Positions 1 through 36,117 of a stretch of 64,000 bases of DNA are shown here, in pieces (the first letter of the stretch is position 1; every line of letters begins with the position of its first letter). Source of the DNA: Paracoccus sp. DMF-8 (GTDB taxonomy: Bacteria > Pseudomonadota > Alphaproteobacteria > Rhodobacterales > Rhodobacteraceae). The stretch covers positions 186,001-250,000 of the forward strand of contig NZ_JARJHL010000003.1 in NCBI RefSeq assembly GCF_029309835.1. The letters are read 5' to 3'. Position numbers and translations under genes: made by a program. A model generated the notes under the pieces. That model had not been told where the DNA came from. It saw only the letters and a program-made list of their open reading frames with translations, and made no database searches.

Positions 1-1161
1 GTGGCGCGACAGGGCGGCGGCCAGTTGATCCTCGCCCTCGGCGGGCAAAAGCGAACAGGTCGCATAGACCAGCCGCCCGCCGGGTTTCAGCACATCCAGC
101 GCGTGATCCAGCAGATTCGCCTGCAATTCGACCAGCGCCGGGATGCCCGATCCGTCGCGGATCAGCGGCAGTTCGGGGTGGCGGCGGATCGTGCCGGTGG
201 CCGAACAGGGCGCGTCCAGCAAGATCGCGTCGGGGGCGGTTTCAGGGCGCCACTCCAGCGCATCGCCCGCGACCATCTGCGCGCGCAGCCCGCAGCGGGT
301 CAGGTTTTCGCCCACCCGTTCCAGACGCGCGGCCGAGATATCCAGCGCCGTGACCCGGCAGCCCGCCGCAGCAAGCTGCAAGGTCTTGCCCCCCGGCGCG
401 GCGCACAGATCGGCGACAACCTCGCCCGGTTGCGGGTTCAGGATCCGCGCCGCCATCGCCGCCGCTGCGTCCTGCACCCACCAGTCGCCCGCCTCATAGC
501 CCGGCAGCGCGCTGACCTGCGCACCCTGCGGCTGACGGAACGACCCGCCCGGCAGGGCCGCGCCCGGCGCCTCACGCCCCGGCTTGACGGTCAGGTCGAT
601 CGGCGCGCCGCGTTCATGCGCGGCCTCGATCGCCAGCGCGACATCGCCGCCCCAGGTCGCGGAAACCGGGTTGCGCAGCCATGCGGGCAGGTGCTGCGGC
701 GACAGGTCGCGCCATTCGCCCGCCATCCCCGACGCCCGGCGCAGCACGGCATTGACCATGCCAGCGGCCTCTTGCCCCTTGCGGCCCATGCTGCGGGCCA
801 GCGCGACACCGGCATAGACGACGCCATGCGGCGCCTCGTCCAGCGCCAGCATCTCGACCACGGCCAGACGCAGCAGCCAACGGATATCGGGACGCGGGCG
901 GCGCGACATCAGGGGGGCCAGCAGCGCATCGGCACGGTCGGCGCGGCGCAGCGTTTCCGCCGCCAGCCGCCTTGCCCGCGCCCGCCCCGCCGGGGGCAGC
1001 GGCCCGGCCACGGTCACCGCCTCGTCCAGCGTCGCGCCTTCGCCCACCGCCTGCAGCATCGCCAGCGCCGCCTGACGCACCTCGTCGGGGCGGTCGCCCC
1101 TTGGCCGATGCCTGCCCTGTCTTCGCTTGTCCAATCCGCGCCCCTTGCCTAGATTGTCCAC
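1..1161 (-). CDS. rsmB: 16S rRNA cytosine-C5 methyltransferase RsmB (partial, 3' end outside window)
   Basis: RsmB/Sun transfers a methyl group from SAM to C967 of 16S rRNA in the cytosol. The frame is open to the left edge and encodes about 387 residues, so only the extreme C-terminus is missing. An N-terminal NusB-like helical domain is followed by the Rossmann methyltransferase. I read the SAM-binding motif DLCAAPGGKT and both conserved cysteines of the m5C family, in DAPCSATGT and YATCSLLP. The start is taken as GTG at 1161, preceded at the right distance by an AAGGGA Shine-Dalgarno; an in-frame TTG 27 bases further in is an alternative. The gene diverges from the SDHAF4-like gene at 1189. 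Confidence 0.9.
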   Translation of the reverse strand, partial: MDNLGKGRGLDKRRQGRHRPRGDRPDEVRQAALAMLQAVGEGATLDEAVTVAGPLPPAGRARARRLAAETLRRADRADALLAPLMSRRPRPDIRWLLRLAVVEMLALDEAPHGVVYAGVALARSMGRKGQEAAGMVNAVLRRASGMAGEWRDLSPQHLPAWLRNPVSATWGGDVALAIEAAHERGAPIDLTVKPGREAPGAALPGGSFRQPQGAQVSALPGYEAGDWWVQDAAAAMAARILNPQPGEVVADLCAAPGGKTLQLAAAGCRVTALDISAARLERVGENLTRCGLRAQMVAGDALEWRPETAPDAILLDAPCSATGTIRRHPELPLIRDGSGIPALVELQANLLDHALDVLKPGGRLVYATCSLLPAEGEDQLAAALSRH

Positions 1162-1188
1162 ATCTATCCCTTTTCCAAGGAAATCGCC

Positions 1189-1377
1189 ATGACCGAACGC
1201 GCCATGACCGAACGCAAGGACCTGCCGCCTGCGGCGCAGCGCGCCCTTGCCGAAGCCGAAGAGCGGCGCCGGAACGCCGCGCCGCTGGACCTGCCGACAG
1301 AGCTGGGCGGACGCGACGGCCCCGAGCCGGTCCGCTACGGCGATTACGAACGCAAGGGGCTGGCCGTCGATTTCTGA
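1189..1377 (+). CDS. DUF1674 / SDHAF4-like succinate dehydrogenase assembly factor
   Basis: A 62-residue protein ending in GGRDGPEPVRYGDYERKG and then LAVDF, the signature of DUF1674, the bacterial relatives of mitochondrial SDHAF4, which protects the flavinated SdhA subunit during complex II assembly. It has no signal peptide and is charged throughout. AAGGA lies 8 bases before ATG 1189, which fixes that start even though the codons ATGACCGAACGC are repeated 15 bases later at 1204. It diverges from rsmB. Family assignment is confident; the SDH role is inferred from the eukaryotic homologue. Confidence 0.8.
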   Translation: MTERAMTERKDLPPAAQRALAEAEERRRNAAPLDLPTELGGRDGPEPVRYGDYERKGLAVDF

Positions 1378-1531
1378 CGGCCGGATTCTGATGGCCGGCG
1401 GGTCGTTGTTCGACCGGTTTCCCACGCATCTCACAGAAGCGTGACACGAAAGACGCGACCGTTTACCTGTCGTTTACCGTCCAGCCGCGAAGTTGACGCC
1501 ACGCACCGCCCCGACGAGAAAGATCGATATC

Positions 1532-2734
1532 ATGTCCGGCCGCATCCTGCCGAGGTGGCAAACAGCCGCTGTCCTTCTGTTGGCTCTGGCCGCTCAGGCG
1601 GCGGCGCAGGGCATGTTCGGGGGCGGATCGCGCGGCACGCCCGGTCCGCGCGAAGTCGGCGTGATGACCGTGTCGGATGAAAACGTGCCCTATACGGTGA
1701 CCCTGCCGGGCCGGGCCGTCGCCTATCAGGAAACCGGCATCCGCCCGCAGGTCGGCGGCGAAGTGCTTGAAATATCGTATGAACCCGGCCAACCCGTCGC
1801 GCAGGGTGAGGTGTTGTTCCGGCTGGACCCGGAAACGCTGTCGGCGGCCCTTGCCGCAGCCGAGGCATCCGTCGCGGGCGCCGAAGCCAGCCTGAGTTCG
1901 GCGCAGGCCACGGTGGAACGCTATCGCCGGCTGGAAGGTTCGGGCGTGACATCGGTCGACCGCTCGAATGCCGAAGTCGCGCTGGCGCAGGCGCAGGCCG
2001 AACTGAAAGCCGCCGAGGCCGCCCGCGACACCGCCCAGCTTTCCCTGAAGCGCACCGAAATCGTCAGCCCGATTCAGGGCATTCCCGATGTCGCCGCCGT
2101 CTCGGTCGGCGATCTGGTCACCGCGAACCAGTCCGAACTGCTGACGACGATCACCCAGCTTGATCCGATCTATGTCGATGTGAACGAATCCAGCGCGCGC
2201 CTGCTGCGCAACCGCGAAAGGGTGCAGGCCGGCAGCCTGCTGGTGAACGGCGAGGCAGGCACCCGCGTCATTCTGGAAACCGGAGAGGCCTATCAGGGCA
2301 CGGGCAGGCTGGTCTCGCCCGGCATCGCGGTATCGCCGACCACGGGGACGGTGCCGATCCGGCTGCAATTCGACAACCCCGACGGGATGATCCTGCCCGG
2401 CCAGTTCCTGCGCGTCGAAATGACCGTGGGCACCACCCGCGCCGTGCTGATCCCGCAGCGCGCGACACGCCGCGCGACCGACGGCACGCTGACCGCCTTT
2501 GTCGCGCGCGACGGCACCGCGCAACAGATCACCCTGACCGAATCGGGCAGCTATCGCGGCTCGTGGATCGTGACCCAGGGCATCACGGCGGGCGAGGAGG
2601 TCATTCTGGACGGGCTGGAAAACCTGCGCTCGGGCGCGGAAATTGCCACGGTTCCGGTGGCGCTGGATGCGCAGGGCGTGGTCAGACCCGCCGAAGCACC
2701 AGAAGCCAGCCCCCCCGCCGCGACGGCGGGCTGA
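1532..2734 (+). CDS. RND efflux periplasmic adaptor (AcrA/MexA family)
   Basis: Membrane-fusion protein of about 400 residues that links an inner-membrane RND pump to an outer-membrane TolC channel. The start is placed at ATG 1532 rather than an in-frame ATG at 1493, because translation from 1532 begins directly with a signal peptide (MSGRILPRWQ, hydrophobic LLLALAAQAAAQ). The mature part has the expected order: biotinyl-lipoyl half-motif, an Ala/Glu-rich alpha hairpin (about residues 110-180), the second lipoyl half (IVSPIQG), then beta-barrel and membrane-proximal domains. The pump gene follows 6 bases downstream, so the two are surely co-transcribed. No regulator is adjacent; the substrate cannot be told from sequence. 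Confidence 0.93.
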   Translation: MSGRILPRWQTAAVLLLALAAQAAAQGMFGGGSRGTPGPREVGVMTVSDENVPYTVTLPGRAVAYQETGIRPQVGGEVLEISYEPGQPVAQGEVLFRLDPETLSAALAAAEASVAGAEASLSSAQATVERYRRLEGSGVTSVDRSNAEVALAQAQAELKAAEAARDTAQLSLKRTEIVSPIQGIPDVAAVSVGDLVTANQSELLTTITQLDPIYVDVNESSARLLRNRERVQAGSLLVNGEAGTRVILETGEAYQGTGRLVSPGIAVSPTTGTVPIRLQFDNPDGMILPGQFLRVEMTVGTTRAVLIPQRATRRATDGTLTAFVARDGTAQQITLTESGSYRGSWIVTQGITAGEEVILDGLENLRSGAEIATVPVALDAQGVVRPAEAPEASPPAATAG

Positions 2735-2740
2735 CCCGGA

Positions 2741-5700
2741 ATGGCGCAGTTTTTCATCCACCGCCCCGTCTTTGCCTGGGTTCTGGCCATCGTCACCATG
2801 CTGGCGGGGGGCTTTTCGATCCTGACCCTGCCGGTGTCGCAATATCCCGACATCGCGCCCACGACGATCCGCATCAGCGCCAATTATTCGGGTGCGACCG
2901 CGCAGGCGGTGCAGAATTCGGTGACGAAACCCATCGAGGATTCGCTGACCGGGCTGGACGGGCTGTTATATACCGTTTCGTCATCCGCCACCGGGCGTTC
3001 GACCCTGACCCTGACCTTCGACGATTCCGTCACCCCCGTCGATGCGCTGAACGAAGTCCAGTCCAAGGTCCGCTCGGTCGAGGGGCGCCTGCCCTCTCCG
3101 GTGCAGACCGACGGGGTGCGGATTTCGCGGTCCAGCACCTCGATCCTGATGGTGGCGGCGCTGGTTTCGACCGAAAACCGCCACAGCCGGATCGAATTGG
3201 GCAACCTCATCGAAGAGGTGATCGAAGGTCCCGTCAAGCGGGTCGAGGGCGTGGGCGAGGTCAACGTCTTTGGTTCCGGCTATGCGATGCGGATCTGGCT
3301 GGACCCACTGCGGCTGGCGCAGTTCCAACTGACGCCATCCGACATCACATCCGCCGTCGCGGCGCAAAACACCACCGTATCGGTAGGCAGCCTTGGCAGT
3401 CAGCCCGTCACCGAGGGCCAGCAGTTCACCGCGACGATCACCGCGCAAAGCCAGCTGACCTCGGTCGATGATTTCCGCAACATCCTGCTGAAAACCGGCA
3501 CGGATGGGGCGACGGTCCGGCTTGGCGACGTGGCCGAGGTCGAAATCGGGCAGGAAAGCTATGGCGCGGATTCGCGCTTCAACGGCAACAGCGCATCGGG
3601 TTTTCGCGTCAGCCTGGCCAATGGCGCCAATGCCGTCGATACCGCCGCGGGCGTCCGCGCGGTGCTGGAAAACCTGAAATCATCCCTGCCCGACGGGCTG
3701 GAGGTTCAGATCGCCTATGACACCGCCCCCTTTGTCGAGCTGTCGATCGAAAAAGTCTATCACACCCTGATCGAGGCCATCGTCCTGGTCTTTCTGGTCA
3801 TCCTGATTTTCCTGCAGAACTGGCGCGCGACCCTGATCCCGATCATCGCCGTGCCGGTCGTGTTGCTGGGCACCTTCGGGATGCTGGCGGCGCTTGGCTA
3901 TTCGATCAACACGCTGACCATGTTCGCGATGGTGCTGGCCATCGGGCTGTTGGTCGATGACGCCATCGTCGTGGTCGAAAACGTCGAGCGCGTCATGACC
4001 GAAGAAGGCCTTGGCCCGGTCGAGGCGACCGAGAAAAGCATGAAGCAGATTTCCGGCGCGCTGATCGGCATCGCGCTGGTCCTGTCGGCGGTCTTTGTGC
4101 CGATGGCCTTCATGCCGGGATCGACCGGGGTGGTTTACCGGCAGTTTTCGGTGACGATCATCACCGCCATGGTGCTGTCGCTGTTCGTCGCGCTGATCCT
4201 GACGCCCGCAATGTGCGCATCCATGCTGCGCCAGTCGCATGGCCCGGCCCGTTTCGCCCCCGCGCGCTGGTTCAACGCGGCGTTCGAGCGGGCGACGAAC
4301 GGCTACGGCGCGACCGTCGCGCGGACGTTGCGCAGGCCCTTTGTCGTCATGGTCGCGCTGGCGATCATCAGCTTCGGGGTTTACGATCTGTTTGCGCGCA
4401 TGACCTCCAGCTTCTTGCCGGCCGAGGATCAGGGCGTGTTGCAGGTCCAGATCAACCTGTCCGAAGGCACGACCAGCCAGCAGACCGCCGCCGTCGCCGC
4501 CGAAATCGAGGATTACCTGCTGAACGACGAATCCGACACGGTCGAAGGCGTGCTGGCAACGCTTGGCTGGAACTTTGCCGGATCGTCGCAGGCGCGCGGG
4601 CTGATGTTCGTCAAGCTGCGCGATTTCGCCGAACGCAAGGGCGCTGACCAGTCCGCACGGGCGCTGGCCGCGCGGGCCAATGCGAAATTCGGCAGTCACC
4701 GCGCCGGGCGGATCATGTTCCTGCAACCGCCCGCGATTCCGGGTCTGGGCAATTCGTCAGGCTTCAGCATGTATCTGCTGGATCAGGCCGGCAATGGCCG
4801 CGAGGCGCTGACACAGGCTTCGGAACAGTTGGAGCAGATCGCGACCAGCGATGCCCGCCTGCAAAACGTCGAGGCGCGCGGCACCGATGACGACGCTGCG
4901 CTGAAAATCGACATCGACCAGCAAAAGGCCGAAAGTTTCGGCGTCCGCGTGGCCGAGGTGAACGCCATGCTGTCGACGATCTTTGCCGGGACCGAGGTGA
5001 ACGACTTTGCCCTTGGCGCGCAACTGCGCCCGGTCATCGTCCAGAGCGGCGCCGAAAACCGCATGCAGCCCGAGGATGTGGAAAAATGGTATGCCCGCAA
5101 TTCCGGGGGCGAAATGGTGCCGTTTTCCGCCTTCATGGCGACGCGGTGGGAACCGGTCGATCCGCGCCTGCAACGTATCGACGCCATCGACGCCATCGAG
5201 TTTTCGGGCCAGCCAAGCGAAAGCGCCAGTTCCGGCACCGCCATGGCCGCGATGGAGGAACTGGTTTCCGACATGCCCGGCTATGGCATCGCCTGGACCG
5301 AACTGTCCTATCAGGAACGCCAGTCGGGCAATCAGGCGCCCTTTCTGTATGCGCTGTCGGTGCTGGTCGTCTTTCTGTGCCTGGCCGCGCTGTATGAAAG
5401 CTGGTCGATCCCGTTTTCGGTGATGCTGGCCGTTCCGGTCGGTGTCCTGGGCGCGGTCATCGCGGCGCTGACATTCGGTCAGGCCAATGACGTCTATTTC
5501 AAGGTCGGCATCCTGACCACCATCGGCCTTGCCGCCAAGAACGCCATCCTGATCGTCGAATTCGCCCGCGATCTGGAAGATCGTGGCCGCGAAACCATCG
5601 CCGCCGCCATAGAGGCCGCGCGGCTGCGGCTGCGCCCGATCCTGATGACCTCGCTGGCCTTTATCCTGGGCGTGACGCCTTTGGCGATTGCCACCGGCGC

Positions 5701-5881
5701 CGGTGCCGCCGCGCAGAACGCCATCGGCATCGGGGTGATGGGCGGCATGATCGCTGCCACCTTCCTTGGGATTTTCCTGGTGCCCGGCTTTTATGTGGTG
5801 ATCCGCCGCCTGACCACGCGACGCGGCGGCAAGGGCCGCAGCAAGGACAGCGGCATGAGCCCGACCGGGCCACAGGTCTGA
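2741..5881 (+). CDS. RND multidrug efflux permease (AcrB/MexB, HAE1 family)
   Basis: Proton-driven inner-membrane pump of 1046 residues, the normal length of the HAE1 family. It starts with the typical MAQFFIHRPVFAWVLAI helix. Two large periplasmic loops (about 30-335 and 560-870) separate the twelve expected membrane helices. The proton-relay pair is present as Asp406-Asp407 in GLLVDDAIVVVENV, and the partner lysine as Lys933 in GLAAKNAILIVEF. It lies 6 bases behind its adaptor. No outer-membrane component is in the same operon; the TolC at 7316 is the obvious candidate partner. Substrates are unknown. Confidence 0.95.
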   Translation: MAQFFIHRPVFAWVLAIVTMLAGGFSILTLPVSQYPDIAPTTIRISANYSGATAQAVQNSVTKPIEDSLTGLDGLLYTVSSSATGRSTLTLTFDDSVTPVDALNEVQSKVRSVEGRLPSPVQTDGVRISRSSTSILMVAALVSTENRHSRIELGNLIEEVIEGPVKRVEGVGEVNVFGSGYAMRIWLDPLRLAQFQLTPSDITSAVAAQNTTVSVGSLGSQPVTEGQQFTATITAQSQLTSVDDFRNILLKTGTDGATVRLGDVAEVEIGQESYGADSRFNGNSASGFRVSLANGANAVDTAAGVRAVLENLKSSLPDGLEVQIAYDTAPFVELSIEKVYHTLIEAIVLVFLVILIFLQNWRATLIPIIAVPVVLLGTFGMLAALGYSINTLTMFAMVLAIGLLVDDAIVVVENVERVMTEEGLGPVEATEKSMKQISGALIGIALVLSAVFVPMAFMPGSTGVVYRQFSVTIITAMVLSLFVALILTPAMCASMLRQSHGPARFAPARWFNAAFERATNGYGATVARTLRRPFVVMVALAIISFGVYDLFARMTSSFLPAEDQGVLQVQINLSEGTTSQQTAAVAAEIEDYLLNDESDTVEGVLATLGWNFAGSSQARGLMFVKLRDFAERKGADQSARALAARANAKFGSHRAGRIMFLQPPAIPGLGNSSGFSMYLLDQAGNGREALTQASEQLEQIATSDARLQNVEARGTDDDAALKIDIDQQKAESFGVRVAEVNAMLSTIFAGTEVNDFALGAQLRPVIVQSGAENRMQPEDVEKWYARNSGGEMVPFSAFMATRWEPVDPRLQRIDAIDAIEFSGQPSESASSGTAMAAMEELVSDMPGYGIAWTELSYQERQSGNQAPFLYALSVLVVFLCLAALYESWSIPFSVMLAVPVGVLGAVIAALTFGQANDVYFKVGILTTIGLAAKNAILIVEFARDLEDRGRETIAAAIEAARLRLRPILMTSLAFILGVTPLAIATGAGAAAQNAIGIGVMGGMIAATFLGIFLVPGFYVVIRRLTTRRGGKGRSKDSGMSPTGPQV

Positions 5882-6029
5882 TCCGGGTGGCGATCCGGGT
5901 TGCCTGCGGTTCGGCACAGGCGGGCGCCCATGCCGCGACTGCCCGGCCCGACCCGGCGGGACACGCGCCATTCACTTGACCGGGGCATCCGCATAGGATC
6001 GCGCCCGAACCGAAAGACAAGGGACCAGC

Positions 6030-6449
6030 ATGGACCAGCCAGACCTGCGTGCAACCGCCGCCGACACTCAGCCCGAATTCGCCAACATGCTGGGAATCCG
6101 CGTGATTTCCGCAACCGCCGACGAAGTTGTCACCGAAATGCCCGTCACCGTTTCGCTGTCGAACCGCAACGGCGTGCTGCATGGCGGCGCGATCATGGGG
6201 CTGGCCGACAACACCGGCGGCACGGCAGCCGCGATCAATCTGCGGCAGGGCATGGCGACCACCACCATCGAAAGCAAGACGAACTTCCTGCGCCCGATCC
6301 GCATCGGAGACACCGCCCGCGCCACCGCGATTGCGCTGCACAAGGGCCGCAAGACCGAAATCTGGCAGACCACGATCCGGCGCGGCGACGGCAAGGTGGC
6401 GGCAATCGTCACCCAGACCCAGATGACACTGGAATGGCAGGAGGGTTGA
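6030..6449 (+). CDS. PaaI-type hotdog-fold thioesterase
   Basis: A 139-residue single hotdog domain of the PaaI/4HBT superfamily, which hydrolyses acyl-CoA thioesters in the cytosol. The family core is visible: the [17 protein letters not shown] helix, where the Asp is the usual catalytic acid, and the later strand [13 protein letters not shown]. It ends in the usual MTLEWQ-type strand. It stands alone, 148 bases after the RND pump and on the same strand, with no obvious operon partner, so the substrate is unknown. Confidence 0.85.
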
Positions 6450-6639
6450 TTGCGCCCGCGAATCGGTCCGGCAACACCGCTTTCCAGCACCCGGCGGATT
6501 TCTGTCCAACCGTTCGGCAATCGGCGAAAAAGAGCCGTCACAATCGCCGACAGCCGTGATTTCCACGCCTTCCCGCCGTTGCCGATCCGCGATTTTCGTG
6601 GCAATAGGATGCAAAAGCAAACCAGAGCAGGGCATGCCA

Positions 6640-7293
6640 ATGACTGACTTCGCGCAGCGGCGGACCATGATGGTCGACACTCAGGTCCGACCCAATGATG
6701 TGACCAGCTATCCGGTCATCGAAGCCATGCTGAACATCCCGCGCGAGGCATTCGTCCCCGAAACCATGCGCGACGTCGCCTATGTCGGCGAAAACATCGC
6801 CATCGGCCACGGCCGCGAATTGCTGGCACCGCGCACCATCGGCCTGATCCTTGAAACGCTGGAACTGAAAAACTCGGATCTGGTTCTGGATGTCGGCTGT
6901 GGCTATGGCTACGCCTCTGCCTGCGCCGCCCGCGTGGCCGAGGCCGTGGTCGCCATCGACGACATCCCCGATTTCGCGACCGAGGCGCAGCAGCGCCTGA
7001 CCGATCAGGGCATCTTCAACGTCGCCGTCGCGCAGGCCCGCCTGACCGAAGGCTGGCCCGGCCAGGGCCCCTATGACGCGATGATGATCGGCGGCGCGAT
7101 CGAGGTTTTCCCCGACAGCGTGGCCGACCAGCTGCGCGAAGGCGGGCGTATCGTCGCGATCTTCAAGGAAAGCAACCTTGGCACTGCCCGCATCGGCCGC
7201 AAGATCGACGGCCGCATCAACTGGCGTCTTGCCTTCAACGCATTCGCCCCTGTGCTGCCAGAGTTTTCACACGTCCCGGGCTTTGCCCTTTGA
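6640..7293 (+). CDS. Protein-L-isoaspartate methyltransferase family protein (PIMT-like)
   Basis: A 217-residue SAM-dependent methyltransferase of the Pcm family. It has the family's N-terminal helical part ([20 protein letters not shown]) and SAM motif I as [16 protein letters not shown]. The start at ATG 6640 is chosen because homologues begin with MTDFAQ; an ATG six bases upstream and a longer frame from 6556 also exist. This is the divergent copy that in alphaproteobacteria commonly sits directly before tolC, as here (22 bases). A canonical pcm is at 10708-11409, so this one may have another role. The lack of the usual isoaspartyl-binding context makes real isoaspartate repair doubtful. 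Confidence 0.8.
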
Positions 7294-7315
7294 CGGCCAT
7301 CAAAAGGTGATCCCG

Positions 7316-8731
7316 ATGATCCGCAAGAAACTGGCCGCGCTGCGCACGCCCCTGATCGCGGCGCTGATGGCTGGCGCCACCGCTTTGCCCGTCATGGCTG
7401 AATCGCTGGCCGATACGATGGTGTCGGCCTATCGCCACTCGGCCCTTCTGGACCAGAACCGCGCCGTGCTGCGCGCCGCCGACGAAGATGTCGCGGCCGC
7501 CATGGCCGCGCTGCGCCCGGTCATCAGCTGGGTTGCCGAACATAGCTATCGCAACACCGAAGGCTATGACTCGCGCACGACCTCGCTGAATCTGCAGGCG
7601 CAGGTGACGCTGTATGACTTTGGCCGCAGCCAGTTCGCCATCGACATGGCCAAGGAAACCGTGCTGGCGACCCGCGCCGCGCTGGTCGGCGTCGAACAGG
7701 ACGTGCTGCTCAGCGCGGTGCAGGTCTATCTGGACGTGCGCAGTTCGCGCGAACAGGTCGAGCTGCAGGAAAACTCGGTCCGGCTGCTGTCCGAAGAACA
7801 GCAGGCCGCATCCGACCGCTATGAGGTCGGCGAAATCACCCAGACCGACGTGTCGCTGGCCGATGCCGCGCTGGCCGCGGCGCGGGCGGGGCTTGCCTCG
7901 GCGCAGGGCACGCTGGAAATCTCGGCCGAGAATTTCATGATGGTGACCGGCCACAAGCCCGGCGCCCTTTCGGCACCGCCGCCGACGCCCCGCCTGCCCG
8001 CTTCGGTCGACGAGGCGCGGGCGATCGCACAGCGTTCGCACCCGCTGATCAAGCAGGCACAGCGCACCGCCGCCGCCGCAGAGCTGCGCGTCGGGGCCGC
8101 CGCCGCGGAACGCAACCCGACCATCACCGGCACGCTCGGGGTTGGCAGTTCGCGCGGGAATTCGATGCAGGGCAACGCCCTGACCGGCTATCGCGACGTG
8201 AACGAAACGACCGATTCCGGCAGCGCCTCGATCAGCATGCAGCAGACGCTGTATTCCGGTGGCCGCCTGCCTGCGGCCCATCGCAAGGCGATGGCCAATC
8301 GCGATTCGGCGCGGGCTGACCTTTTGAACACCTCGCGGCAGGTCAGTCAGGCGGTGGGCACGGCCTGGGCGGGAATCGACGTGGCGCGCGCGCAGATCCG
8401 GTCGATCGACGAACAGATCGTTGCGGCACAGCAGGCATATAACGGTGTTCGCGAAGAGGCGACGCTTGGCGCACGCACCACGCTGGACGTTCTGGACGCC
8501 GAACAGAACCTGCTCGAAGCCCGCGCGGACAAGATTTCCGCAGAGGCCGAACTGCAGTTAGCACATTATCAACTTTTGTCCGCTATGGGTTTGTTGACGG
8601 TAGAAAACCTTCAACTGGGAATTCCGACCTATGACCCATCGGCCTATTACAACGCAGTTCGCAACGCCCCCTACACCAGCAATCAGGGCCAAAGCCTTGA
8701 TCGCGTTCTTCGGGCGATCGGTCGGGAATAA
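7316..8731 (+). CDS. tolC: TolC family outer-membrane channel
   Basis: Outer-membrane efflux/type I secretion channel of about 471 residues. A signal peptide (MIRKKLAALRTPLIAALMAG ending near VMA) precedes two OEP repeats made of long coiled helices with beta strands between them. Typical phrases are LYDFGRSQ and TLYSGGR, one per repeat, and the second helix pair ends in TLDVLDAEQNLLEA. The start is ATG 7316, with AAAAGG upstream; the frame runs open further upstream but lacks a signal sequence there. It is probably shared by the RND pump at 1532-5881 and by type I exporters. The last stretch (SAYYNAVRNAPY onward) is the usual variable tail. Confidence 0.95.
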   Translation: MIRKKLAALRTPLIAALMAGATALPVMAESLADTMVSAYRHSALLDQNRAVLRAADEDVAAAMAALRPVISWVAEHSYRNTEGYDSRTTSLNLQAQVTLYDFGRSQFAIDMAKETVLATRAALVGVEQDVLLSAVQVYLDVRSSREQVELQENSVRLLSEEQQAASDRYEVGEITQTDVSLADAALAAARAGLASAQGTLEISAENFMMVTGHKPGALSAPPPTPRLPASVDEARAIAQRSHPLIKQAQRTAAAAELRVGAAAAERNPTITGTLGVGSSRGNSMQGNALTGYRDVNETTDSGSASISMQQTLYSGGRLPAAHRKAMANRDSARADLLNTSRQVSQAVGTAWAGIDVARAQIRSIDEQIVAAQQAYNGVREEATLGARTTLDVLDAEQNLLEARADKISAEAELQLAHYQLLSAMGLLTVENLQLGIPTYDPSAYYNAVRNAPYTSNQGQSLDRVLRAIGRE

Positions 8732-8778
8732 GTCTCTCCCGATCCTGAACATCCGCCCTGTGGCGGGGGCTGGTCGCC

Positions 8779-9453
8779 ATGGCTGACCTTGCCCGCCACA
8801 GCGCATCCCCCTCCGGTTCCGATAATATCGGCGATGTGCTGGCCTCGATCCGCCGCCTGATCGCGCAAGACGAAGCCAACGGCCTTTCGGACACCACCGC
8901 CCGCCGCCTTGGCGCGCTGCATCAGCGCGGCGACGCGGCCCCGGTCACGGACCTGCGCCTCACCCAATCGACAGGTGCAGAGGACGCGCCCCTTGTCCTT
9001 GGCGGTGACGATTTCATCGGGCCCGTCCAGCAGACCCTCTCGGCACCGCAGGTGGCAGCAGAACCGCCGCAAACCGAAGTCGAAACGCCCGGGATGGAAC
9101 CCTGCGGATCCATCCCGCCCGTCGCCCATGCCGGGACGCAAGAGCAGGCAGAACCGGCAACCCCCGAAGAAACTCTCACCACCATTCACGAGCAGGTTGA
9201 TACCATGATCCAACAAGCCCAGGCCACCGCCCCGACCCAGCTTCACCCCGCCATCGCCACCGAAGAGCCGCGCAACCTGTTCCTGATGGAAGAGGAGGAA
9301 TTCGTCATGCCCGACACGCCCCTGCGCGGCATGATCCGTGAAACGCTGGTGCAGGAACTGCAGGGCGAATTCGGCGACCAGTTCAGCCGCAAACTGCGCA
9401 ATCTGGTCCGCGCGGAAATCGCCATGGCCCTGAAAGAGGCGATCAAGGGCTGA
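8779..9453 (+). CDS. PopZ/DUF2497-like acidic protein
   Basis: A 224-residue protein built like PopZ, the alphaproteobacterial pole-organising scaffold. It has a short N-terminal helix (GDVLASIRRLIAQDE), a long Pro/Glu/Thr-rich acidic linker with no predicted structure (about 40-165), and a C-terminal helical domain (LRGMIRETLVQELQGEFGDQ, then FSRKLRNLVRAEIAMALKEA) suited to oligomerisation. No signal peptide or membrane helix. It follows tolC by 47 bases. The resemblance is one of architecture and the N-terminal helix rather than strong identity, so the function is an inference; related Rhodobacterales proteins are usually called hypothetical. Confidence 0.5.
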   Translation: MADLARHSASPSGSDNIGDVLASIRRLIAQDEANGLSDTTARRLGALHQRGDAAPVTDLRLTQSTGAEDAPLVLGGDDFIGPVQQTLSAPQVAAEPPQTEVETPGMEPCGSIPPVAHAGTQEQAEPATPEETLTTIHEQVDTMIQQAQATAPTQLHPAIATEEPRNLFLMEEEEFVMPDTPLRGMIRETLVQELQGEFGDQFSRKLRNLVRAEIAMALKEAIKG

Positions 9454-9472
9454 ACAGCCGGAAACGAGCCGC

Positions 9473-9499
9473 CCTGATGCGCGGGTTTTGCGCGTCAGG
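9473..9499. terminator. Hairpin between convergent genes
   Basis: A 10-bp stem (CCTGATGCGC paired with GCGCGTCAGG, one G-U pair) around a 7-base loop ggggttt-like, between the PopZ-like gene and the convergent nlpD. There is no run of T after it on either strand, so termination efficiency is uncertain. Confidence 0.4.
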
Positions 9500-9579
9500 C
9501 CCGGTCAGGCAATGCGCGGCCGGGCCCCCTGCCGTTCCCGACCTGAAAGCTGACCGGACCCATTCGCCGGAAAGCCGCG

Positions 9580-10707
9580 TCAGTTCAGATATTTCTCGGG
9601 GTCGACGCTTTCAAAGCCGTTGCGGACCTCGAAATGCACAAGGCCCTGACTTCTGGCCTTGCCAAGCGGCGTTCCGGCCTGAACGGCCTGCCCCTTGGAC
9701 ACAGCGACATCATCCAGACCGGCATAGACGGTCATCAGATTGCCTTCGTGGCGCACGACAATGATCGGCACCTGATCGACATCGCGGGTAACCGCCGCCA
9801 CGGTCCCGGCACCGGCCGCCGATACCGCAGCACCGGGCGCGGCGGAAATGTCGATCCCTTCGTTCTTGCCCTTTTCATAGACCCGCGCGATGGCGCCATT
9901 GACCGGCATCCGGAATTTCGCGCTGCCCGATGCCGCCGTTCGCGTGCTGCCCATATCGGGGGCGGCCGGGGTTTCGACCGCAGCGGCGGCGGGGGCTGTT
10001 TTTTCCGCAGGCAGCGCGGCCGAGGCCGAGGGCGGCTGCGGGGTCGGGCTGCCGCTGCCCGGCGCGGTCGTGACCTCGGACTGGCGCGGCGGCTGCGCGC
10101 CCGCGACCGGGATCATCAGCCGCTGACCCGGCCGCACGGCCATATCCGCAGGCAGACCGTTCCACTGGGCCAGATCGTTCACGCCAACGCCGTAACGCCG
10201 GGCAATCGACCAGGCGGTTTCGCCGCTGGCGACGACATGCTGACGGGGTTGCGGCGCGGGCTGCGTCGTCGTCACCGTCCGCGTCGCGCCCCGATCGTTC
10301 GTCGCGGGCACGCGCGCGGTCACCGTGGCGGGCTGCGCGGCGGCAACGCGCGTCGGCAGGGCCACCACCGCACCGGCGTTCAGCACGGTATTCGCGTCAA
10401 TCGCATTATACTGCGCAACCTGCGCCGCGTTCAGCCCCAACCGGGCCGAGATCGAGGAAACCGAATCCCCCTGACGCGCCACCGCGACCTGATAGCCGGG
10501 ATAGGAAATCACCCCGCCCGGGTCCGGTTGCGGACGCGGCATCGCGGCTGCGGCAGCCTGCGTCGTGCTGAGCCCGCCGCCCCAGCCACCCCGGAAATCG
10601 GGGTCGAAATTGTCCAGACGCATCCCGGTATATTCACCGTTCGGCCCGCAAGAGGCCAAGGTCACAGCGATGAAAGAGCCTGTCGCCCACAGCCCGAAAT
10701 TCGACAT
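9580..10707 (-). CDS. nlpD: NlpD-like LysM/M23 lipoprotein (amidase activator type)
   Basis: From the internal ATG at 10707 this is a 375-residue lipoprotein. A signal peptide ends in the lipobox-like LASC, followed by a Pro/Gln-rich linker, a weak LysM, a clear LysM ([18 protein letters not shown]) and a C-terminal LytM/M23 domain. AAGGA sits 9 bases before the ATG. The M23 metal ligands are incomplete: the first His of HxxxD is Asn (KNEGIDI), and the later His is Gly (VYAGLDD), while VHFEVR is kept. E. coli NlpD shows the same loss and acts by activating amidases, so the protein is likely a septal amidase activator. It is continuous in frame with upstream pcm. Confidence 0.82.
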
Positions 10708-31501: not shown

Positions 31502-32641
31502 TCAGGAGATCAGGGGCCGCTGCTTGTCGAGGTGGCGCACGACCAGCTTGCGGCTTTGATGGCCCGACAGCATCGGCCGCGCGGGCGCGAACCCCGCATC
31601 GTCACCGCGCAGATGGGGGCACAGCGCCAACAACTCCCGCTGCATCGCGGGGCCGATCACCCGCAGCGCCCTTTTGCCGGGATAAAAGGATTCGACCACC
31701 GCGCCATTCGCCGTGATCAGTTCATGCTGGTCGAACATCAGGTGGAAATAGCTGACCGGCAGGGGCGGTTTGCGGATGTCGATACCCTCGATTTGACAAA
31801 GCTGCTTGGCCAGCACCAGAACCTGCAGGCTGTCGAACAGGTTGCGCGCGATTTTCGAGCGGATGCGCAGACGCAACTGCGGCGAGACCAGCAGGTCCCG
31901 CGCGGGCATATCGCGGCCAAGCGCCCCCGCCGCGATCAGGATCGGGCGCAACTGCGGCGTGTCCCGAAGATCGCCCGGCGCCAGATCGTGGCGCCCGACC
32001 CATGCCAAGGCGCGCGGACCGTGATCTATGGTGTCCACCAGATCGCCCGCCCGCAGGTTTTCGACCGGCACCTCGCCCATCGGCGTGGCGATCCGCGTGC
32101 CGTGGGTGAAACCGGATGACACGCCGGGGCCATCCACCACCTCCTCGACCGAGGTGCCGACGCGCGGCCGCTGCTTCAGCAGTTCGACCTGAAACAATGC
32201 GCGGTCGGTCGGGCCGCGATCCTGTGGTTCCTGCGGATACAGGATCGCGCCCGTCGCGTGGTCGGTCGGAATATAGATCTCGCCATTGCCAAGCCGCAGC
32301 ACCTGCAACAGGGCATTTTGCGTGAACGGACCGCTGCCCCCCGCGCCGTAACAGGTCAGCCGCGCCGTGAATCGCCCCTGCCAGTCCAGCGGGGTGACGG
32401 GGGCCTGACGGCTGCCGATCCGGAACCCCTCCGGCGCCCCGGCGGGGCCGGGAAACAGCGCGCGGATCGCCATGCCGGGCAGGGTCGTCGGGTTGAAGGG
32501 GCGTTTCAGCAATAACTCCGCTTCTTCGGACACGGTTTCCGTCCCGCCCGCGCCGGACAGATCGGCAAGATTGCCGATATAGATCGCGCTGGAGACACGG
32601 CCTTTGGTCATCACGCTCTCGATGAATAATGTTTGCGCCAT
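31502..32641 (-). CDS. Hint-domain protein lacking the N-terminal Cys nucleophile
   Basis: A 379-residue protein. Residues 1-170 form a beta-rich region of no recognised family. Residues 177-330 are a Hint (hedgehog/intein) domain: GTRIATPMGEVPVENLRAGD and LLVSPQLRLRI with ANGAVVESFYP. Active Hint domains start with Cys or Ser (usually CFTPGT); here the position reads Gly177 (SSGFTHGT), so self-cleavage by the usual N-S shift is not expected, although Ser176 is adjacent. No signal peptide. It is the last gene of the S8 peptidase cassette, 174 bases after the endonuclease gene. A role as adaptor or secreted structural protein is speculative. Confidence 0.75.
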   Translation of the reverse strand: MAQTLFIESVMTKGRVSSAIYIGNLADLSGAGGTETVSEEAELLLKRPFNPTTLPGMAIRALFPGPAGAPEGFRIGSRQAPVTPLDWQGRFTARLTCYGAGGSGPFTQNALLQVLRLGNGEIYIPTDHATGAILYPQEPQDRGPTDRALFQVELLKQRPRVGTSVEEVVDGPGVSSGFTHGTRIATPMGEVPVENLRAGDLVDTIDHGPRALAWVGRHDLAPGDLRDTPQLRPILIAAGALGRDMPARDLLVSPQLRLRIRSKIARNLFDSLQVLVLAKQLCQIEGIDIRKPPLPVSYFHLMFDQHELITANGAVVESFYPGKRALRVIGPAMQRELLALCPHLRGDDAGFAPARPMLSGHQSRKLVVRHLDKQRPLIS

Positions 32642-32815
32642 TTGCGGACCCGTCGCGATGTCAGAAGCGGTGCGGGATCGCCAGCCTTTGCGTCAAATTC
32701 GCATCAGAAAAGTGACTGTCGCGATTTTCCCGCAACTTCCGGGGCTTTGCAAGATAAATGGTCCCGGCGACCCCGCCGGAATTTCCGTGGATCATCGCGG
32801 CGGCTGCGTGCGGGC

Positions 32816-33748
32816 TCAGCGTTGCAGATACAGGTCGCCAAGCGTGGTCAGGCGCACCTCGATCCCGGTCGCGCCGGCCATCACGTCGAAATCGGCATAG
32901 GCCGACAGATCCAGCCCGGTTTCCTGCGCCAGTGCCGAAACCGGCACCTGCATATCCTGAAAATCGCCAAAGACGAAACGCGCCGCCGAGGGGCGGGGCA
33001 GGTATTCCAGCTGCGTGCGCAGATAGCCGATCACCGTCAATTCGCCGGTGACCGCATGGGTGAATGCGATGATTTTCCAGAAGGCGGCGGGGATCTGGCG
33101 GTTGTAATAAACCGGGTCGTCCCGCCCCAGAACCGGGCCGGTGACGACCGTCACGCGCATATTTTCGCGGTCGGTGTTGTTCAGGACGTAGTTTTCCAGA
33201 TCCAGCCAGATCCCGCCGTTGAAGCCCTGACGCTGCGGCGCGACATTGGTGATGTGAAACGTATCCGCATCGGCCTGTTCGGCGGTGGCCTGATCGCCCC
33301 AATTCGGGTCTTCGCGTCGGGTCATATGGCCCCGGCTGAACAGCCCGCGATTTTCCTGACCGTAACCTTCGCGCAGGTTTTGCAGGGCGGCATCAATGCG
33401 CGGATCGCGGCGCCAGATATCGGTGCGCCTGATCCCGCGCAGCAATTGCGCGCCGTCGATATTGCAGGCGCTGAACAGGGGCAGCGCGCGCGACCGCGAC
33501 ATGCGCAGGGAAAAATGCGTATATTTCAGCTCTGTCGGATCATGGCCGGGGACCTGCGCCTCGGGCAGCAATTCGACCAGATCATCGGCCCAGATCCCCG
33601 CGCCCGGCAGGGGCAAGGGGGTCCCGTGACCGATGAAACCGGGGTCATAGCCGCCGCGCCCGGCATAGTTGTCCAGCGGCAGCATCGCCTCGGATACGCG
33701 AAACGGATCGGCGCCCTGATCCGGGCCAAAGCTGCGGATGTTGCGCAT
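32816..33748 (-). CDS. NUC1-type DNA/RNA non-specific endonuclease
   Basis: A 310-residue His-Me-finger nuclease related to Serratia nuclease and EndoG. The catalytic block is SRGHMTRRED, with the general-base His141; the metal Asn is Asn168 in ITNVAPQRQGFN, followed by the WLDLENYV helix. Unlike the Serratia enzyme it has no signal peptide, so it may act inside the cell. The region 70-130 (LKYTHFSLRMSRSRALPLFS) is the standard beta core. ATG 33748 (MRNIRSFGP) is preferred; the frame is open to 33823. It lies between the small I9-like gene and the Hint gene in a run of minus-strand genes. Confidence 0.87.
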   Translation of the reverse strand: MRNIRSFGPDQGADPFRVSEAMLPLDNYAGRGGYDPGFIGHGTPLPLPGAGIWADDLVELLPEAQVPGHDPTELKYTHFSLRMSRSRALPLFSACNIDGAQLLRGIRRTDIWRRDPRIDAALQNLREGYGQENRGLFSRGHMTRREDPNWGDQATAEQADADTFHITNVAPQRQGFNGGIWLDLENYVLNNTDRENMRVTVVTGPVLGRDDPVYYNRQIPAAFWKIIAFTHAVTGELTVIGYLRTQLEYLPRPSAARFVFGDFQDMQVPVSALAQETGLDLSAYADFDVMAGATGIEVRLTTLGDLYLQR

Positions 33749-33829
33749 CGGCTGTTCCTGCTGGCCCCCGTCTTTGCTGGCCCGTCTTTTTCTGATTCCG
33801 GCCCCTACTGGTCCCGCCGACAACCGCGA

Positions 33830-34081
33830 TCAGCGGAATTGCGATTTATGCGGCGGGTTCAGTTCGAATTTCTTTTCGCTGGACAATTGCCACTGGCCAA
33901 GGCCGCTCAGGCTTTTCTCGACCGCGCGGCGCGAGCCTTCGACGCGAATCGTTCCGGGCACGATCACCTCGGCCTCGAAGGATTTCAGATGGTCCAGCGC
34001 CTCGGCCGTTTCTTCGCGGCTCGGGTCGCCATCATCCGAGAAAACAAGGACAAAACATTCCTTTTTGCGCTGCGTTGCCAT
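33830..34081 (-). CDS. 83-residue protein, possibly an I9-like inhibitor/propeptide
   Basis: Not a family I can name. It has no signal peptide. The pattern reads beta (FVLVFSDDG), helix (REETAEALDHLKSF), two strands (EAEVIVPG, TIRVEG), helix (RRAVEKSLSGLG), strand (WQLSSEKKFEL). That is the order of the ferredoxin-like fold of subtilisin propeptides (peptidase inhibitor I9). It starts 9 bases after the S8 peptidase gene, so it is almost certainly co-expressed with it. I infer a protease inhibitor or folding helper; this needs a structure prediction to test. Confidence 0.6.
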   Translation of the reverse strand: MATQRKKECFVLVFSDDGDPSREETAEALDHLKSFEAEVIVPGTIRVEGSRRAVEKSLSGLGQWQLSSEKKFELNPPHKSQFR

Positions 34082-34090
34082 AGGCTTTCC

Positions 34091-35635
34091 TCATTCGATA
34101 AGGCCCGCGCCCTCGTATTCCTTGCCGAAACCGATCGGGCGGGCCTTCGCATTGGCCATCCTGATGATATCGTCGGACCTTTGCTGGTCCCTGTCCATAT
34201 TCAACACCTCGGGCTGGCCCGAAAGCAATCTGGCGAAAAGGCCTGCCACGGCGGGACAGGCCATCGAGGTTCCGTCCATCACGCCTTTGGCCTGTTCGCT
34301 GACCCAGGATATAATACCGACCCCCGGCCCGATAAAGTCCACCTCGGGGCCGATATTGCTGAAACTGGCAAAGAAGGCATCGCCCACGGGTGCGGGCTTT
34401 TCGGCGATGCTGCGCCCGGTCATCGCGCCTTCGGGCCAGGCGTCCAGAACGCCCGCCGCCGTCACCGCCATGACCACGCCCGAGCGCGCCGGATAGGACA
34501 CGGGCGACATGTAGTCATTTCCCGCCGCCGCGATGCAGACCACCCCCATCGCGCGCGCCCGCCGCACCTCGCGCGAGATCGAGATCGGTTCCGACGACTG
34601 CCCAAGGCTGAGGTTGATCAGGTCGCAACCGTCCTCGACCGCCTGGCGAATGGCGCGGGCAATGGCGAATTCGCTGGCCCCGCCCCTGTCCTTTTCAAAG
34701 ACGCGATAGGCGTGGATTTCGGCGGCAGGCGCGATGCGCGACACGATGCCCGCGACATGGGTGCCATGGCCCGCGCCATTGTCGAACCATTCGTCCGCGG
34801 GTTCCGTCCCGGTGGTATTCAGCCCCCGCACGACATTGATGCCTTGCGCGGGCGATACGCCGGTGTCGATCACCGCAACCCGGACCCCCTGCCCGTCCAG
34901 CGCCCCCGCAGGCGCGAGCATGCGGTCCACGGCATCGCTGAAACCTTCGGCGATGGGGACCAGCGGCAGGGTGGTTTCGGTGTCGCCGCTGTCCAGAACC
35001 TCGACATCCACGGCCTGCGCGGGCCAATAGCCCGACAGGGGGGAACAGATCACCGCCTCGATCACGCTTTGCGCGGCGGGCAGCGCGGTCTTGATGCGGC
35101 CATCGGCATCGGTGCGGATATCGGCAATGCCGATGCCCTTGCGCCCGTTCAGCACGATGATGACATCCGCGCCGACCACCGGCGCGCCCGTCACGCTGTC
35201 CACGCAGCGCAGCGACAGCGACCGTTTCGACCGGAAACTGGCCGGGTTCGACTGTTGCCGGATCAGGTTCGGCAGCCCGTGGCGCAGCGGATACAGGAAC
35301 AGTTCGGGCCGGATGCGCAGCCCCGGATAGCAGCGCGCCAGCTCAAAGGCCTGATCGGGGGTCATCGCGACCAGCGAGGCCTCGTTCAGGTCCAGCGAAT
35401 CCAGCAGGCGGATGCGGCCCACCTCGGTCTGCATGATGCGGCCGCGCGGGCAGGTCGGCGGCGCCTCGCCTTCGTCAGAGGCTTCGGTCAGGGGGCGGGA
35501 CAGGATGCCCGGACCACCCCGGCCATACAGGTGTTTGTGCATGTCGTGGAACAGGTGGAAACTGGTCGTCTCCATCCGGTCGTTGAAGATATTGTCATCG
35601 GGGACGACGACATATCTGCGCTGCTTTGCTGCCAT
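34091..35635 (-). CDS. S8 (subtilisin-like) serine peptidase, cytosolic type
   Basis: A 514-residue peptidase with all catalytic residues: Asp257 (VAVIDTGV), His290 (GAGHGTHVAG), oxyanion Asn373 (AAGNDYMSP) and Ser457 (GTSMACPAVAG). There is no signal peptide (it begins MAAKQRRYVVVPDDN). Residues 80-125 could be a built-in prodomain, and 138-230 look like a carboxypeptidase-regulatory-like beta sandwich (LRCVDSVTGAPVVGADVIIV). It is the first gene of the cassette with the 83-residue protein, the NUC1 nuclease and the Hint protein. An intracellular protease next to a nuclease suggests proteolytic control, but neither target nor trigger is known. Confidence 0.9.
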   Translation of the reverse strand: MAAKQRRYVVVPDDNIFNDRMETTSFHLFHDMHKHLYGRGGPGILSRPLTEASDEGEAPPTCPRGRIMQTEVGRIRLLDSLDLNEASLVAMTPDQAFELARCYPGLRIRPELFLYPLRHGLPNLIRQQSNPASFRSKRSLSLRCVDSVTGAPVVGADVIIVLNGRKGIGIADIRTDADGRIKTALPAAQSVIEAVICSPLSGYWPAQAVDVEVLDSGDTETTLPLVPIAEGFSDAVDRMLAPAGALDGQGVRVAVIDTGVSPAQGINVVRGLNTTGTEPADEWFDNGAGHGTHVAGIVSRIAPAAEIHAYRVFEKDRGGASEFAIARAIRQAVEDGCDLINLSLGQSSEPISISREVRRARAMGVVCIAAAGNDYMSPVSYPARSGVVMAVTAAGVLDAWPEGAMTGRSIAEKPAPVGDAFFASFSNIGPEVDFIGPGVGIISWVSEQAKGVMDGTSMACPAVAGLFARLLSGQPEVLNMDRDQQRSDDIIRMANAKARPIGFGKEYEGAGLIE

Positions 35636-35736: not shown

Positions 35737-36117
35737 CTATGGTTGCAGCCCGTGGCCGATCTGCGGTGCCTGCGCACTGCCTGCGGGCGCGGCCTCGGCA
35801 TTGGCGGCGCGCGGCATCGACTGGCCAAGCAGAATTGTCGCGGACATGCCAAAGACAAAGGCCGCCAGCAGAAACATCACCGGATTGCCGTTCGTCGTCG
35901 CGGCCAGCAGCGCATCCTGCCCCGGAAGCCGCCCGATCCACACCGCATTCATCAAGCCATTCGCCGATTTCAGCATGGACCAGCCAAGCATCGGCAGCGC
36001 GAACAGCAACAGCGCAGGACCGATCGGCCCGGAAATCAGGGTTTTGTCGATCAGGGTTTTGCCGGTGCCGGCGTCAGTTCTGGGGCCGCTTTCGGGGCCA
36101 TTTTCGGGATTGGCCAT
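35737..36117 (-). pseudogene. MATE efflux transporter remnant (N-terminal piece)
   Basis: The frame of 126 codons contains the first two membrane helices of a MATE family exporter (ISGPIGPALLLFALPMLGWS and MNAVWIGRLPGQDALLAATT, then FLLAAFVFGMSATILLGQ). It then stops in unrelated Ala/Pro-rich codons. Full MATE proteins have 12 helices and about 450 residues, so over three quarters are missing. The remainder is not found in the flanking DNA. A deletion relic beside the S8 cassette. Confidence 0.75.

What the first reader, a model, noticed from the sequence alone, without database searches (positions are those of the whole stretch)
31502..35635. S8 peptidase, small I9-like protein, NUC1 endonuclease and Hint protein in one cassette
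Four minus-strand genes run in the same direction: a full-triad S8 peptidase without signal peptide, an 83-residue protein 9 bases later, a His-Me-finger nuclease without signal peptide, and a Hint-domain protein. Seen: the order, intact catalytic residues (Asp257/His290/Ser457; His141/Asn168) and no export signals. Known: proteases and NUC1 nucleases are fused or linked in some bacterial conflict proteins. Inferred: the peptidase may control an intracellular nuclease, as in a suicide or anti-phage switch. Gene relics beside it mark a variable spot. I know of no described system with this composition.
Basis: partly seen in the sequence, partly recalled or inferred. Interest (0 to 1): 0.75.

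Follow-up and report, generated by a model that had tools for sequence, protein, structure and literature searches.

The report
Protease, inhibitor-like protein and nuclease cassette
A small movable bacterial gene set joins a cell-internal protein-cutting enzyme, a tiny protein that probably holds it in check, and a DNA/RNA-cutting enzyme; it looks like a new version of a predicted but unproven bacterial self-defence machine.

Summary
The four genes are as described, but only three form a unit: subtilase (S8), an 83-residue protein and an Endonuclease_NS (NUC1/NucA) nuclease. Hint is a bystander: no relative near 18 other cassettes. In the window's genus (Paracoccus by inference), 18 of 125 genomes carry this S8; all 18 have the small gene directly downstream, and 12 then have the nuclease. 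The close nuclease occurs in those 12 genomes only. Cassettes sit in 8-11 different flank contexts, and all three genes are under purifying selection. S8+small pairs reach other Alphaproteobacteria and a betaproteobacterium; Agrobacterium and a Rhizobium have S8+small+trypsin-NUC1. The general idea is published: "System 3" of Kaur et al. 2020 couples trypsin, sometimes S8, to NucA and proposes a proteolytic cascade. New here are the trypsin-free layout and the conserved stand-alone partner, predicted to have the element order of S8 propeptide inhibitors. Most likely mechanism: an intracellular protease-inhibitor switch that activates a nuclease, for defence or suicide. Inhibition, activation and defence are inferred. 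In one tested relative (LypC) the protease mattered and the nuclease did not.

The parts
34091..35635 (-). S8 subtilase, 514 aa, no hydrophobic N-terminus; triad D257/H290/S457
   Evidence: Pfam 6e-31; residues intact in 19 of 19 copies; in 18 of 125 genus genomes
35291..35635 (-). N-terminal region of the S8 (about residues 1-115), propeptide-like order strand-helix-strand-strand-helix-strand
   Evidence: secondary structure of a low-confidence model, pLDDT 56 overall; inference
34991..35209 (-). small beta domain of the S8 (about residues 143-215), weak CarboxypepD_reg-like match
   Evidence: Pfam 0.035, under cut-off; 0.0056, also under cut-off, in the Agrobacterium relative
34196..34894 (-). 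S8 catalytic domain (residues 248-480)
   Evidence: Pfam
33830..34081 (-). 83-aa partner, I9-like by predicted topology; likely inhibitor or chaperone of the S8
   Evidence: directly downstream of S8 in 18 of 18 genus loci; predicted b-a-b-b-a-b, pLDDT 72; dN/dS 0.29
32816..33748 (-). Endonuclease_NS (NUC1/NucA) nuclease, 310 aa from ATG (a TTG start at 33823 gives 335 aa)
   Evidence: Pfam 7.8e-44; catalytic residues intact in 13 of 13; close copies only beside S8+small in the genus

Best explanation
A three-gene intracellular conflict module. The S8 subtilase is kept quiet by its own propeptide-like N-terminal region and by the stand-alone I9-like 83-aa protein, probably made from the same mRNA. 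When an unknown trigger (infection or stress) removes the small protein, the protease becomes active and releases or activates the NUC1 nuclease, by cutting it or a bound partner. The nuclease then destroys DNA and RNA and stops invader and cell. Shown here: gene order and spacing, conservation, intact sites, lack of hydrophobic N-termini, presence at different genomic sites, and repeated union of this nuclease family with peptidases. Inferred: inhibition by the 83-aa protein, activation of the nuclease by proteolysis, the trigger, and the defence role.
For: S8+small in 18 of 18 genus loci and the nuclease next in 12 of 18. The close nuclease is found in 12 of 125 genomes, all of them cassette carriers. 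A 13th trio lies in another genus. S8+small+Trypsin_2-Endonuclease_NS occur in Agrobacterium and Rhizobium CIAT894 at 33-35% S8 identity. 16 of 20 scanned same-family relatives of the nuclease are Trypsin_2 fusions, two of them Trypsin_2-NUC1-S8. Stand-alone NUC1 follows CHAT + SIR2 genes in R. leguminosarum and trypsin-AAA + NLR-like genes in Polaromonas. 19 cassettes lie in 8 to 11 flank contexts. Purifying selection on all three genes. The small protein's model has propeptide order and matches chain 4zoq_A of a lanthipeptide protease, Z 6.8, rmsd 1.8, 55 aligned; that this chain is the LicP propeptide is recalled.
Against: The nuclease is not next to the pair in 6 of 18 genus loci and in several other S8+small loci. 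No Inhibitor_I9 match for any of 11 small proteins, and the fold match does not stand out from other ferredoxin-like folds. No defence gene, by Pfam names, among the ten window neighbours scanned. Four of the 20 scanned nuclease relatives have no recognisable peptidase domain, and one of 11 plasmid loci has a lone nuclease. The tested relative LypC needs its peptidase but not its nuclease residues for lysis. No sensor is recognised in the cassette.
Confidence: 0.5

Rival explanations
1. S8+small is a self-contained protease-inhibitor (or protease-chaperone) module with its own client, for example a maturation or stress protease, and the nuclease joined it secondarily without being its target.
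For: The pair is wider than the trio: found without a nuclease next to it in 6 of 18 genus loci and in Pararhizobium, R. leguminosarum 9B, Variovorax, Aminobacter, Hyphomonadaceae and G780 (in G043 the contigs end too soon to tell). The S8 tree needs 4 gains or losses of the nuclease. One distant S8 lies beside a LanC-like gene (LanC-like by eye).
Against: A nuclease is present in two separate S8 groups (Paracoccus and relatives; Rhizobiaceae), and the close nuclease never occurs without the pair in 125 genomes.
Confidence: 0.25
2. The protease is the killing or signalling part, and the nuclease is an accessory or stabilising component, as reported for LypC of Caulobacter.
For: LypC (trypsin-NUC1): S296A blocks lysis, H471A/N505A do not, and deleting the nuclease domain destabilises the protein. 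S8+small occurs without nuclease.
Against: Nuclease active-site residues are intact in 13 of 13 separate nuclease genes with median dN/dS 0.27; here it is a separate protein, so it need not stabilise the protease.
Confidence: 0.15
3. The 83-aa protein is an inhibitor of the nuclease (NuiA-like), and the S8 frees the nuclease by destroying it.
For: Gene order small-nuclease; nuclease-inhibitor pairs of this kind are known (NucA/NuiA, recalled).
Against: The small gene follows the S8 also where no nuclease is next to it, in 6 of 18 genus loci; two of those six genomes (G824, G865) have a distant nuclease relative elsewhere.
Confidence: 0.06
4. Exported enzymes for feeding on outside protein and nucleic acid.
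For: Many subtilases and NucA nucleases are secreted (established knowledge).
Against: No hydrophobic N-termini; relatives are fused to trypsin domains or linked to CHAT, SIR2 and NLR-like genes.
Confidence: 0.04

Closest known systems
NucA-peptidase conflict system ('System 3', Kaur, Burroughs, Iyer, Aravind, eLife 2020, PMC7159879; passages seen, section 32 read in full)
   Same: Alphaproteobacteria; Endonuclease_NS nuclease coupled to serine peptidases, S8 included in some fused proteins; proteolytic cascade proposed to deploy the nuclease
   Different: No trypsin in the window cassette; S8 and nuclease are separate genes; a conserved stand-alone small partner of the S8, which that section does not mention
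LypABC / CARD-NLR systems (Banks et al., Nat Microbiol 2026, PMC13236601; abstract, passages, sections 9 and 13 read)
   Same: LypC is trypsin + the same kind of nuclease; stand-alone NUC1 lies in a trypsin-AAA + NLR-like gene row in Polaromonas
   Different: No NLR and no CARD-trypsin protein in the window cassette; S8 instead
Stand-alone I9 (propeptide-type) subtilisin inhibitors and S8 propeptides (family recalled; chains 4zoq_A and 3cnq_P by fold search)
   Same: Predicted strand-helix-strand-strand-helix-strand order, about 80 aa, gene beside a subtilase, conserved C-terminal tail
   Different: No Inhibitor_I9 sequence match; fold match not distinctive
IetAS
   Same: Uses a subtilisin-type protease (recalled); weak IetS match, 5.8e-4
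   Different: No AAA-type partner among the cassette genes or ten neighbours; match very weak

Membership tests
Kaur et al. System 3 (NucA-peptidase) | NucA / Endonuclease_NS nuclease | tested here: met
   Pfam 7.8e-44
Kaur et al. System 3 (NucA-peptidase) | trypsin-like peptidase as second core component, fused or in the operon | tested here: not met
   No Trypsin match in the four genes or ten neighbours; met in the Agrobacterium and Rhizobium versions. A trypsin elsewhere in the genome was not searched for
Kaur et al. System 3 (NucA-peptidase) | S8 peptidase with the nuclease (in some members) | tested here: met
   12 of 18 genus S8 loci have the nuclease
Kaur et al. System 3 (NucA-peptidase) | EAD1 or STAND/Death-like components (subset only) | tested here: inconclusive
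   None reported by Pfam in cassette or neighbours; not searched for by name
CARD-NLR (LypABC-like) | NLR-like ATPase and CARD-trypsin protein in the operon | tested here: not met
   No such domain by Pfam in the cassette or ten neighbours
CARD-NLR (LypABC-like) | endonuclease-type component (in some variants) | tested here: met
   role as effector not shown
Inhibitor family I9 | sequence match to Inhibitor_I9 | tested here: not met
   0 of 11 small proteins at E <= 1
Inhibitor family I9 | I9 propeptide fold | tested here: inconclusive
   Right order of elements at pLDDT 72; 4zoq_A Z 6.8 at rank 3 among many ferredoxin-like folds; prosubtilisin 3cnq_P at rank 38, E 0.11
Inhibitor family I9 | inhibits a subtilase | not testable with these tools
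   needs an assay
Anti-phage defence system | protects cells from phage | not testable with these tools
   needs a challenge test

The most novel reading that the evidence does not exclude
The subtilase + stand-alone I9-like protein is a portable, sensor-like protease-inhibitor switch, a protease analogue of a toxin-antitoxin pair. It has taken the place of the trypsin/NLR or CHAT/SIR2 control parts in front of one shared NucA-type nuclease. Loss of a short-lived small protein on infection would unleash protease and nuclease together.
Probability: 0.35. Interest if true: 0.72.

Novelty: new variant of a known kind. Interest (0 to 1): 0.5.

Why it matters
The proteolytic-cascade idea for NucA systems rests on gene neighbourhoods, and the one experiment on a fused relative that I found (LypC) showed the nuclease residues dispensable for lysis. 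Here protease, candidate inhibitor and nuclease are three short separate genes, so each step (inhibition, release, nuclease activation, protection) can be tested one gene at a time. If the small protein is an inhibitor, a subtilase with an in-trans inhibitor as an immune switch would be a new control principle in this class.

Tried and rejected
Hint as a part: rejected, no relative (E <= 1e-3, ORFs of 100 aa or more) within about 4-10 kb of 18 other cassettes. Against this stands one distant case: in G388 (L156) a Hint relative (3.3e-10) lies 0.8 kb behind a trypsin-NUC1 gene; I take it as chance, one of 20 loci in that call.

Phage origin: no phage record covers 80% of the S8 or nuclease query; 72 and 4 records match in part. 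No scan of viral contigs was made.

83-aa protein by sequence: Pfam, NCBIfam and PADLOC gave nothing relevant; its profile against solved structures gave only weak unrelated matches, best 0.049. Profile comparison of the small family with the S8 N-terminus was not significant (E 0.1 at best for the like-for-like sets), so a shared origin of the two is not claimed.

S8 structure model: pLDDT 56 from eight sequences; not used for a fold search.

The S8 half of the Trypsin_2-NUC1-S8 chains in L162 and L163 is only distantly like the window S8 (71 and 57 bits), so those look like a separate union. Three phylum-level S8 relatives (L222-L224) had no small gene by profile; in L224 an ORF upstream of the S8 resembles it by eye only. 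QhpE (89 bits, cut-off 165) and mycosin (83 bits, cut-off 279) models match under their cut-offs: not members. The PADLOC model named 'subtilase' (2.3e-38) was not traced to a system.

Caveat on circularity: the small-protein profile A5 has 11 sequences, five of them (L007, L040, L042, L043, L165) picked by position behind an S8, the rest found by sequence. Recoveries by this profile of genes not in it: 13 of the 18 genus loci plus L182, L183, L186, L187 and L188.

Rows dropped: dN/dS medians use 171 of 171 S8 pairs, 155 of 171 small-gene pairs (the others outside dS 0.05-1.5) and 78 of 78 nuclease pairs; the G029 S8 enters by its longest matched piece.

Mended on re-check: flank contexts are now given as 8 to 11 (before: about 11), the circularity note is corrected, and the L156 Hint case is added.
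Full report
Observation. The four minus-strand genes are present at the stated coordinates. Pfam gives Peptidase_S8 for the 514-aa protein, Endonuclease_NS for the nuclease, Hint_2 for the last one and nothing for the 83-aa protein. The S8 stop codon overlaps a ribosome site (GAGGAAA) in front of the small gene, 9 bases away. No N-terminus of the window copies is hydrophobic.

What belongs together. In whole-genome searches of the window's genus (125 genomes), 18 have this S8: the window copy, 16 full-length copies at 66-70% identity and G029 at 77% over residues 184-513. In all 18 the small gene lies directly downstream on the same strand, and in 12 of 18 the nuclease follows; the six without it are G011, G887, G824, G864, G819 and G865. 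The close nuclease (66-71% identity outside the window) occurs in 12 of 125 genomes, exactly the 12 cassette carriers. Eleven further genomes have only more distant nuclease matches, of which two (G824, G865) also carry S8+small. These genomes share descent, so the counts are not independent events. A 13th trio is in another genus of the family, G416. No Hint relative lies near any of the other 18 cassettes, so Hint is a bystander; one Hint relative does lie behind a trypsin-NUC1 gene in G388. The genus is Paracoccus by inference: contigs of G864, G011 and G005 have the same lengths as named Paracoccus plasmids.

It is a real, moving unit. Over the cassette copies, median pairwise dN/dS is 0.22 (S8, 19 copies), 0.29 (small, 19) and 0.27 (nuclease, 13). 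S8 triad and oxyanion Asn are intact in 19 of 19; nuclease Arg/His/Asn/Asn/Glu in 13 of 13. Flanks of the 19 loci were compared by shared ORFs (shadow ORFs inflate the counts, so only the grouping is used). Four groups share many flank ORFs: G014/G019/G029; G824/G864; G827/G846/G866/G851/G891; G011/G819. Weaker sharing (3 to 10 ORF matches, partly on the other side of the cassette) joins the last three groups and G831 to each other. Six loci share nothing with any other: G000 (the window), G887, G837, G865, G032 and G416. That makes 8 contexts by single linkage and 11 by strong sharing. The window's ten scanned neighbours are an HTH-cupin regulator, ammonium transporter, TetR, SMR pump, CobW, peroxiredoxin, aldehyde dehydrogenase, glycosyltransferase, epimerase and one ORF without a match: no defence island by Pfam names; PADLOC was not run on them.

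Wider relatives. S8 relatives were followed outside the genus in 17 loci chosen from the hits, not in all hits. By profile (E <= 0.01) the small gene is next to the S8 in 11 (L145, L007, L040, L165, L042, L043, L182, L183, L186, L187, L188) and not found in 6 (L166, L189, L190, L222, L223, L224). L007 and L040 are two copies in one genome, G043. In L189 a similar ORF is visible by eye. Six of the 11 (L145, L007, L040, L165, L042, L043) helped to build the profile. In Variovorax (L186, a betaproteobacterium) the small gene is unannotated. Small proteins of the genus and of the distant group match as profiles (hhalign E 1.2e-4, probability 55%). In Agrobacterium (L182) and Rhizobium CIAT894 (L183) the third gene is a Trypsin_2-Endonuclease_NS fusion. 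On the S8 tree the nuclease label needs four gains or losses, at least two of them forced by well-supported branches; several deep branches are long and unsure.

The nuclease family keeps company with peptidases. The family search found matches in 21 of 394 genomes. Of 21 relatives beyond the trio, 20 were scanned (the short G159 match was not): 16 carry Trypsin_2 and two of these also an S8 domain. Four have no recognisable peptidase: L151 second gene, L153, L158 with a Lamin Tail Domain, and L160. Of 83 plasmid records with a match I examined 11 loci: eight are Trypsin_2 fusions, one is stand-alone behind trypsin-AAA and NLR-like genes (Polaromonas, the first gene only in part), one stand-alone behind CHAT and SIR2/pYEATS genes (R. 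leguminosarum, 56% identity), and one alone (Pseudonocardia). In Agrobacterium a divergent CHAT + S8 + TIR group lies next to the cassette.

The small partner. AlphaFold2 gives strand-helix-strand-strand-helix-strand at mean pLDDT 72, the order of S8 propeptides (I9 type; recalled). Foldseek has no hit at E <= 0.001; prosubtilisin appears at rank 38 with E 0.11. VIA-align ranks a 61-residue chain of a lanthipeptide protease (4zoq_A; the LicP propeptide by recall) third (Z 6.8, rmsd 1.8, 55 residues), in a crowd of ferredoxin-like folds. Its C-terminal tail (LNPPHKAQLR-like) is strongly conserved in the genus; in known propeptide inhibitors the tail fills the active site (recalled). No Inhibitor_I9 match. 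'I9-like inhibitor' is thus an inference from topology and gene position.

Mechanism. I favour an intracellular protease held by an in-trans inhibitor, which on a trigger unleashes or activates the nuclease. Each causal step is inferred. The strongest result against it is on the tested relative LypC, whose peptidase was needed for lysis and whose nuclease residues were not (PMC13236601 section 9). The pair without nuclease shows that the protease has another use as well.

Known or new. Kaur et al. 2020 (PMC7159879 section 32) already describe NucA + trypsin systems in Alphaproteobacteria, with S8 in some fused proteins, and propose a proteolytic cascade. A 2008 survey lists one trypsin-Endonuclease_NS protein (PMC2605481, passages). 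Under strict membership the window cassette fails the trypsin criterion, so I call it a variant. The stand-alone small partner and the separate S8-small-nuclease layout are not in section 32 or in the passages seen, and the searches did not return a title on them. Supplementary files could not be read, figures are not held, and the library misses most subscription papers, so absence from print is not shown.

Noticed in passing
L185 (NZ_CP071627.1) 3426-8888: R. leguminosarum row of genes: abhydrolase/CHAT protein (1028 aa), SIR2_2 + pYEATS protein, then a stand-alone nuclease 56% identical to the window's; looks like another control unit in front of the same nuclease type.
   Followed up: partly
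L182 (NZ_CP039902.1) 2301-7624: On an Agrobacterium Ti plasmid, a CHAT protein, a second S8 and a TIR protein lie divergent to the S8+small+trypsin-NUC1 genes.
   Followed up: partly
L241 (NC_008757.1) 1-5310: Polaromonas plasmid: trypsin-AAA protein, 984-aa AAA_16/NLR-like protein and stand-alone NUC1 in a row, with IS5 transposase and integrase nearby; a LypAB-like set with a separate nuclease.
   Followed up: partly
L162 4508-8299 and L163 3770-7609: Single chains of about 1270 aa with Trypsin_2, Endonuclease_NS and S8 domains; the S8 is only distantly like the window's.
   Followed up: partly
L151 9713-12319: A Trypsin_2-NUC1 protein with an N-terminal N-acetylmuramoyl-L-alanine amidase domain.
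   Followed up: no
L156 7048-7791: A Hint relative 0.8 kb behind a trypsin-NUC1 gene in G388; probably chance, but the same two gene kinds as in the window.
   Followed up: no
L166 11-2706: A distant S8 relative directly after a LanC-like gene (by eye), suggesting peptide maturation in that branch.
   Followed up: no
window 35737-36117: 126-aa ORF upstream of the S8 that looks by eye like the start of a membrane transporter; no Pfam match at 1e-3, possibly a gene remnant.
   Followed up: partly
L188 (NZ_CP050098.1) 1-9618: R. leguminosarum 9B has the S8+small pair beside an 1849-aa DUF3883 protein and another S8 gene.
   Followed up: no
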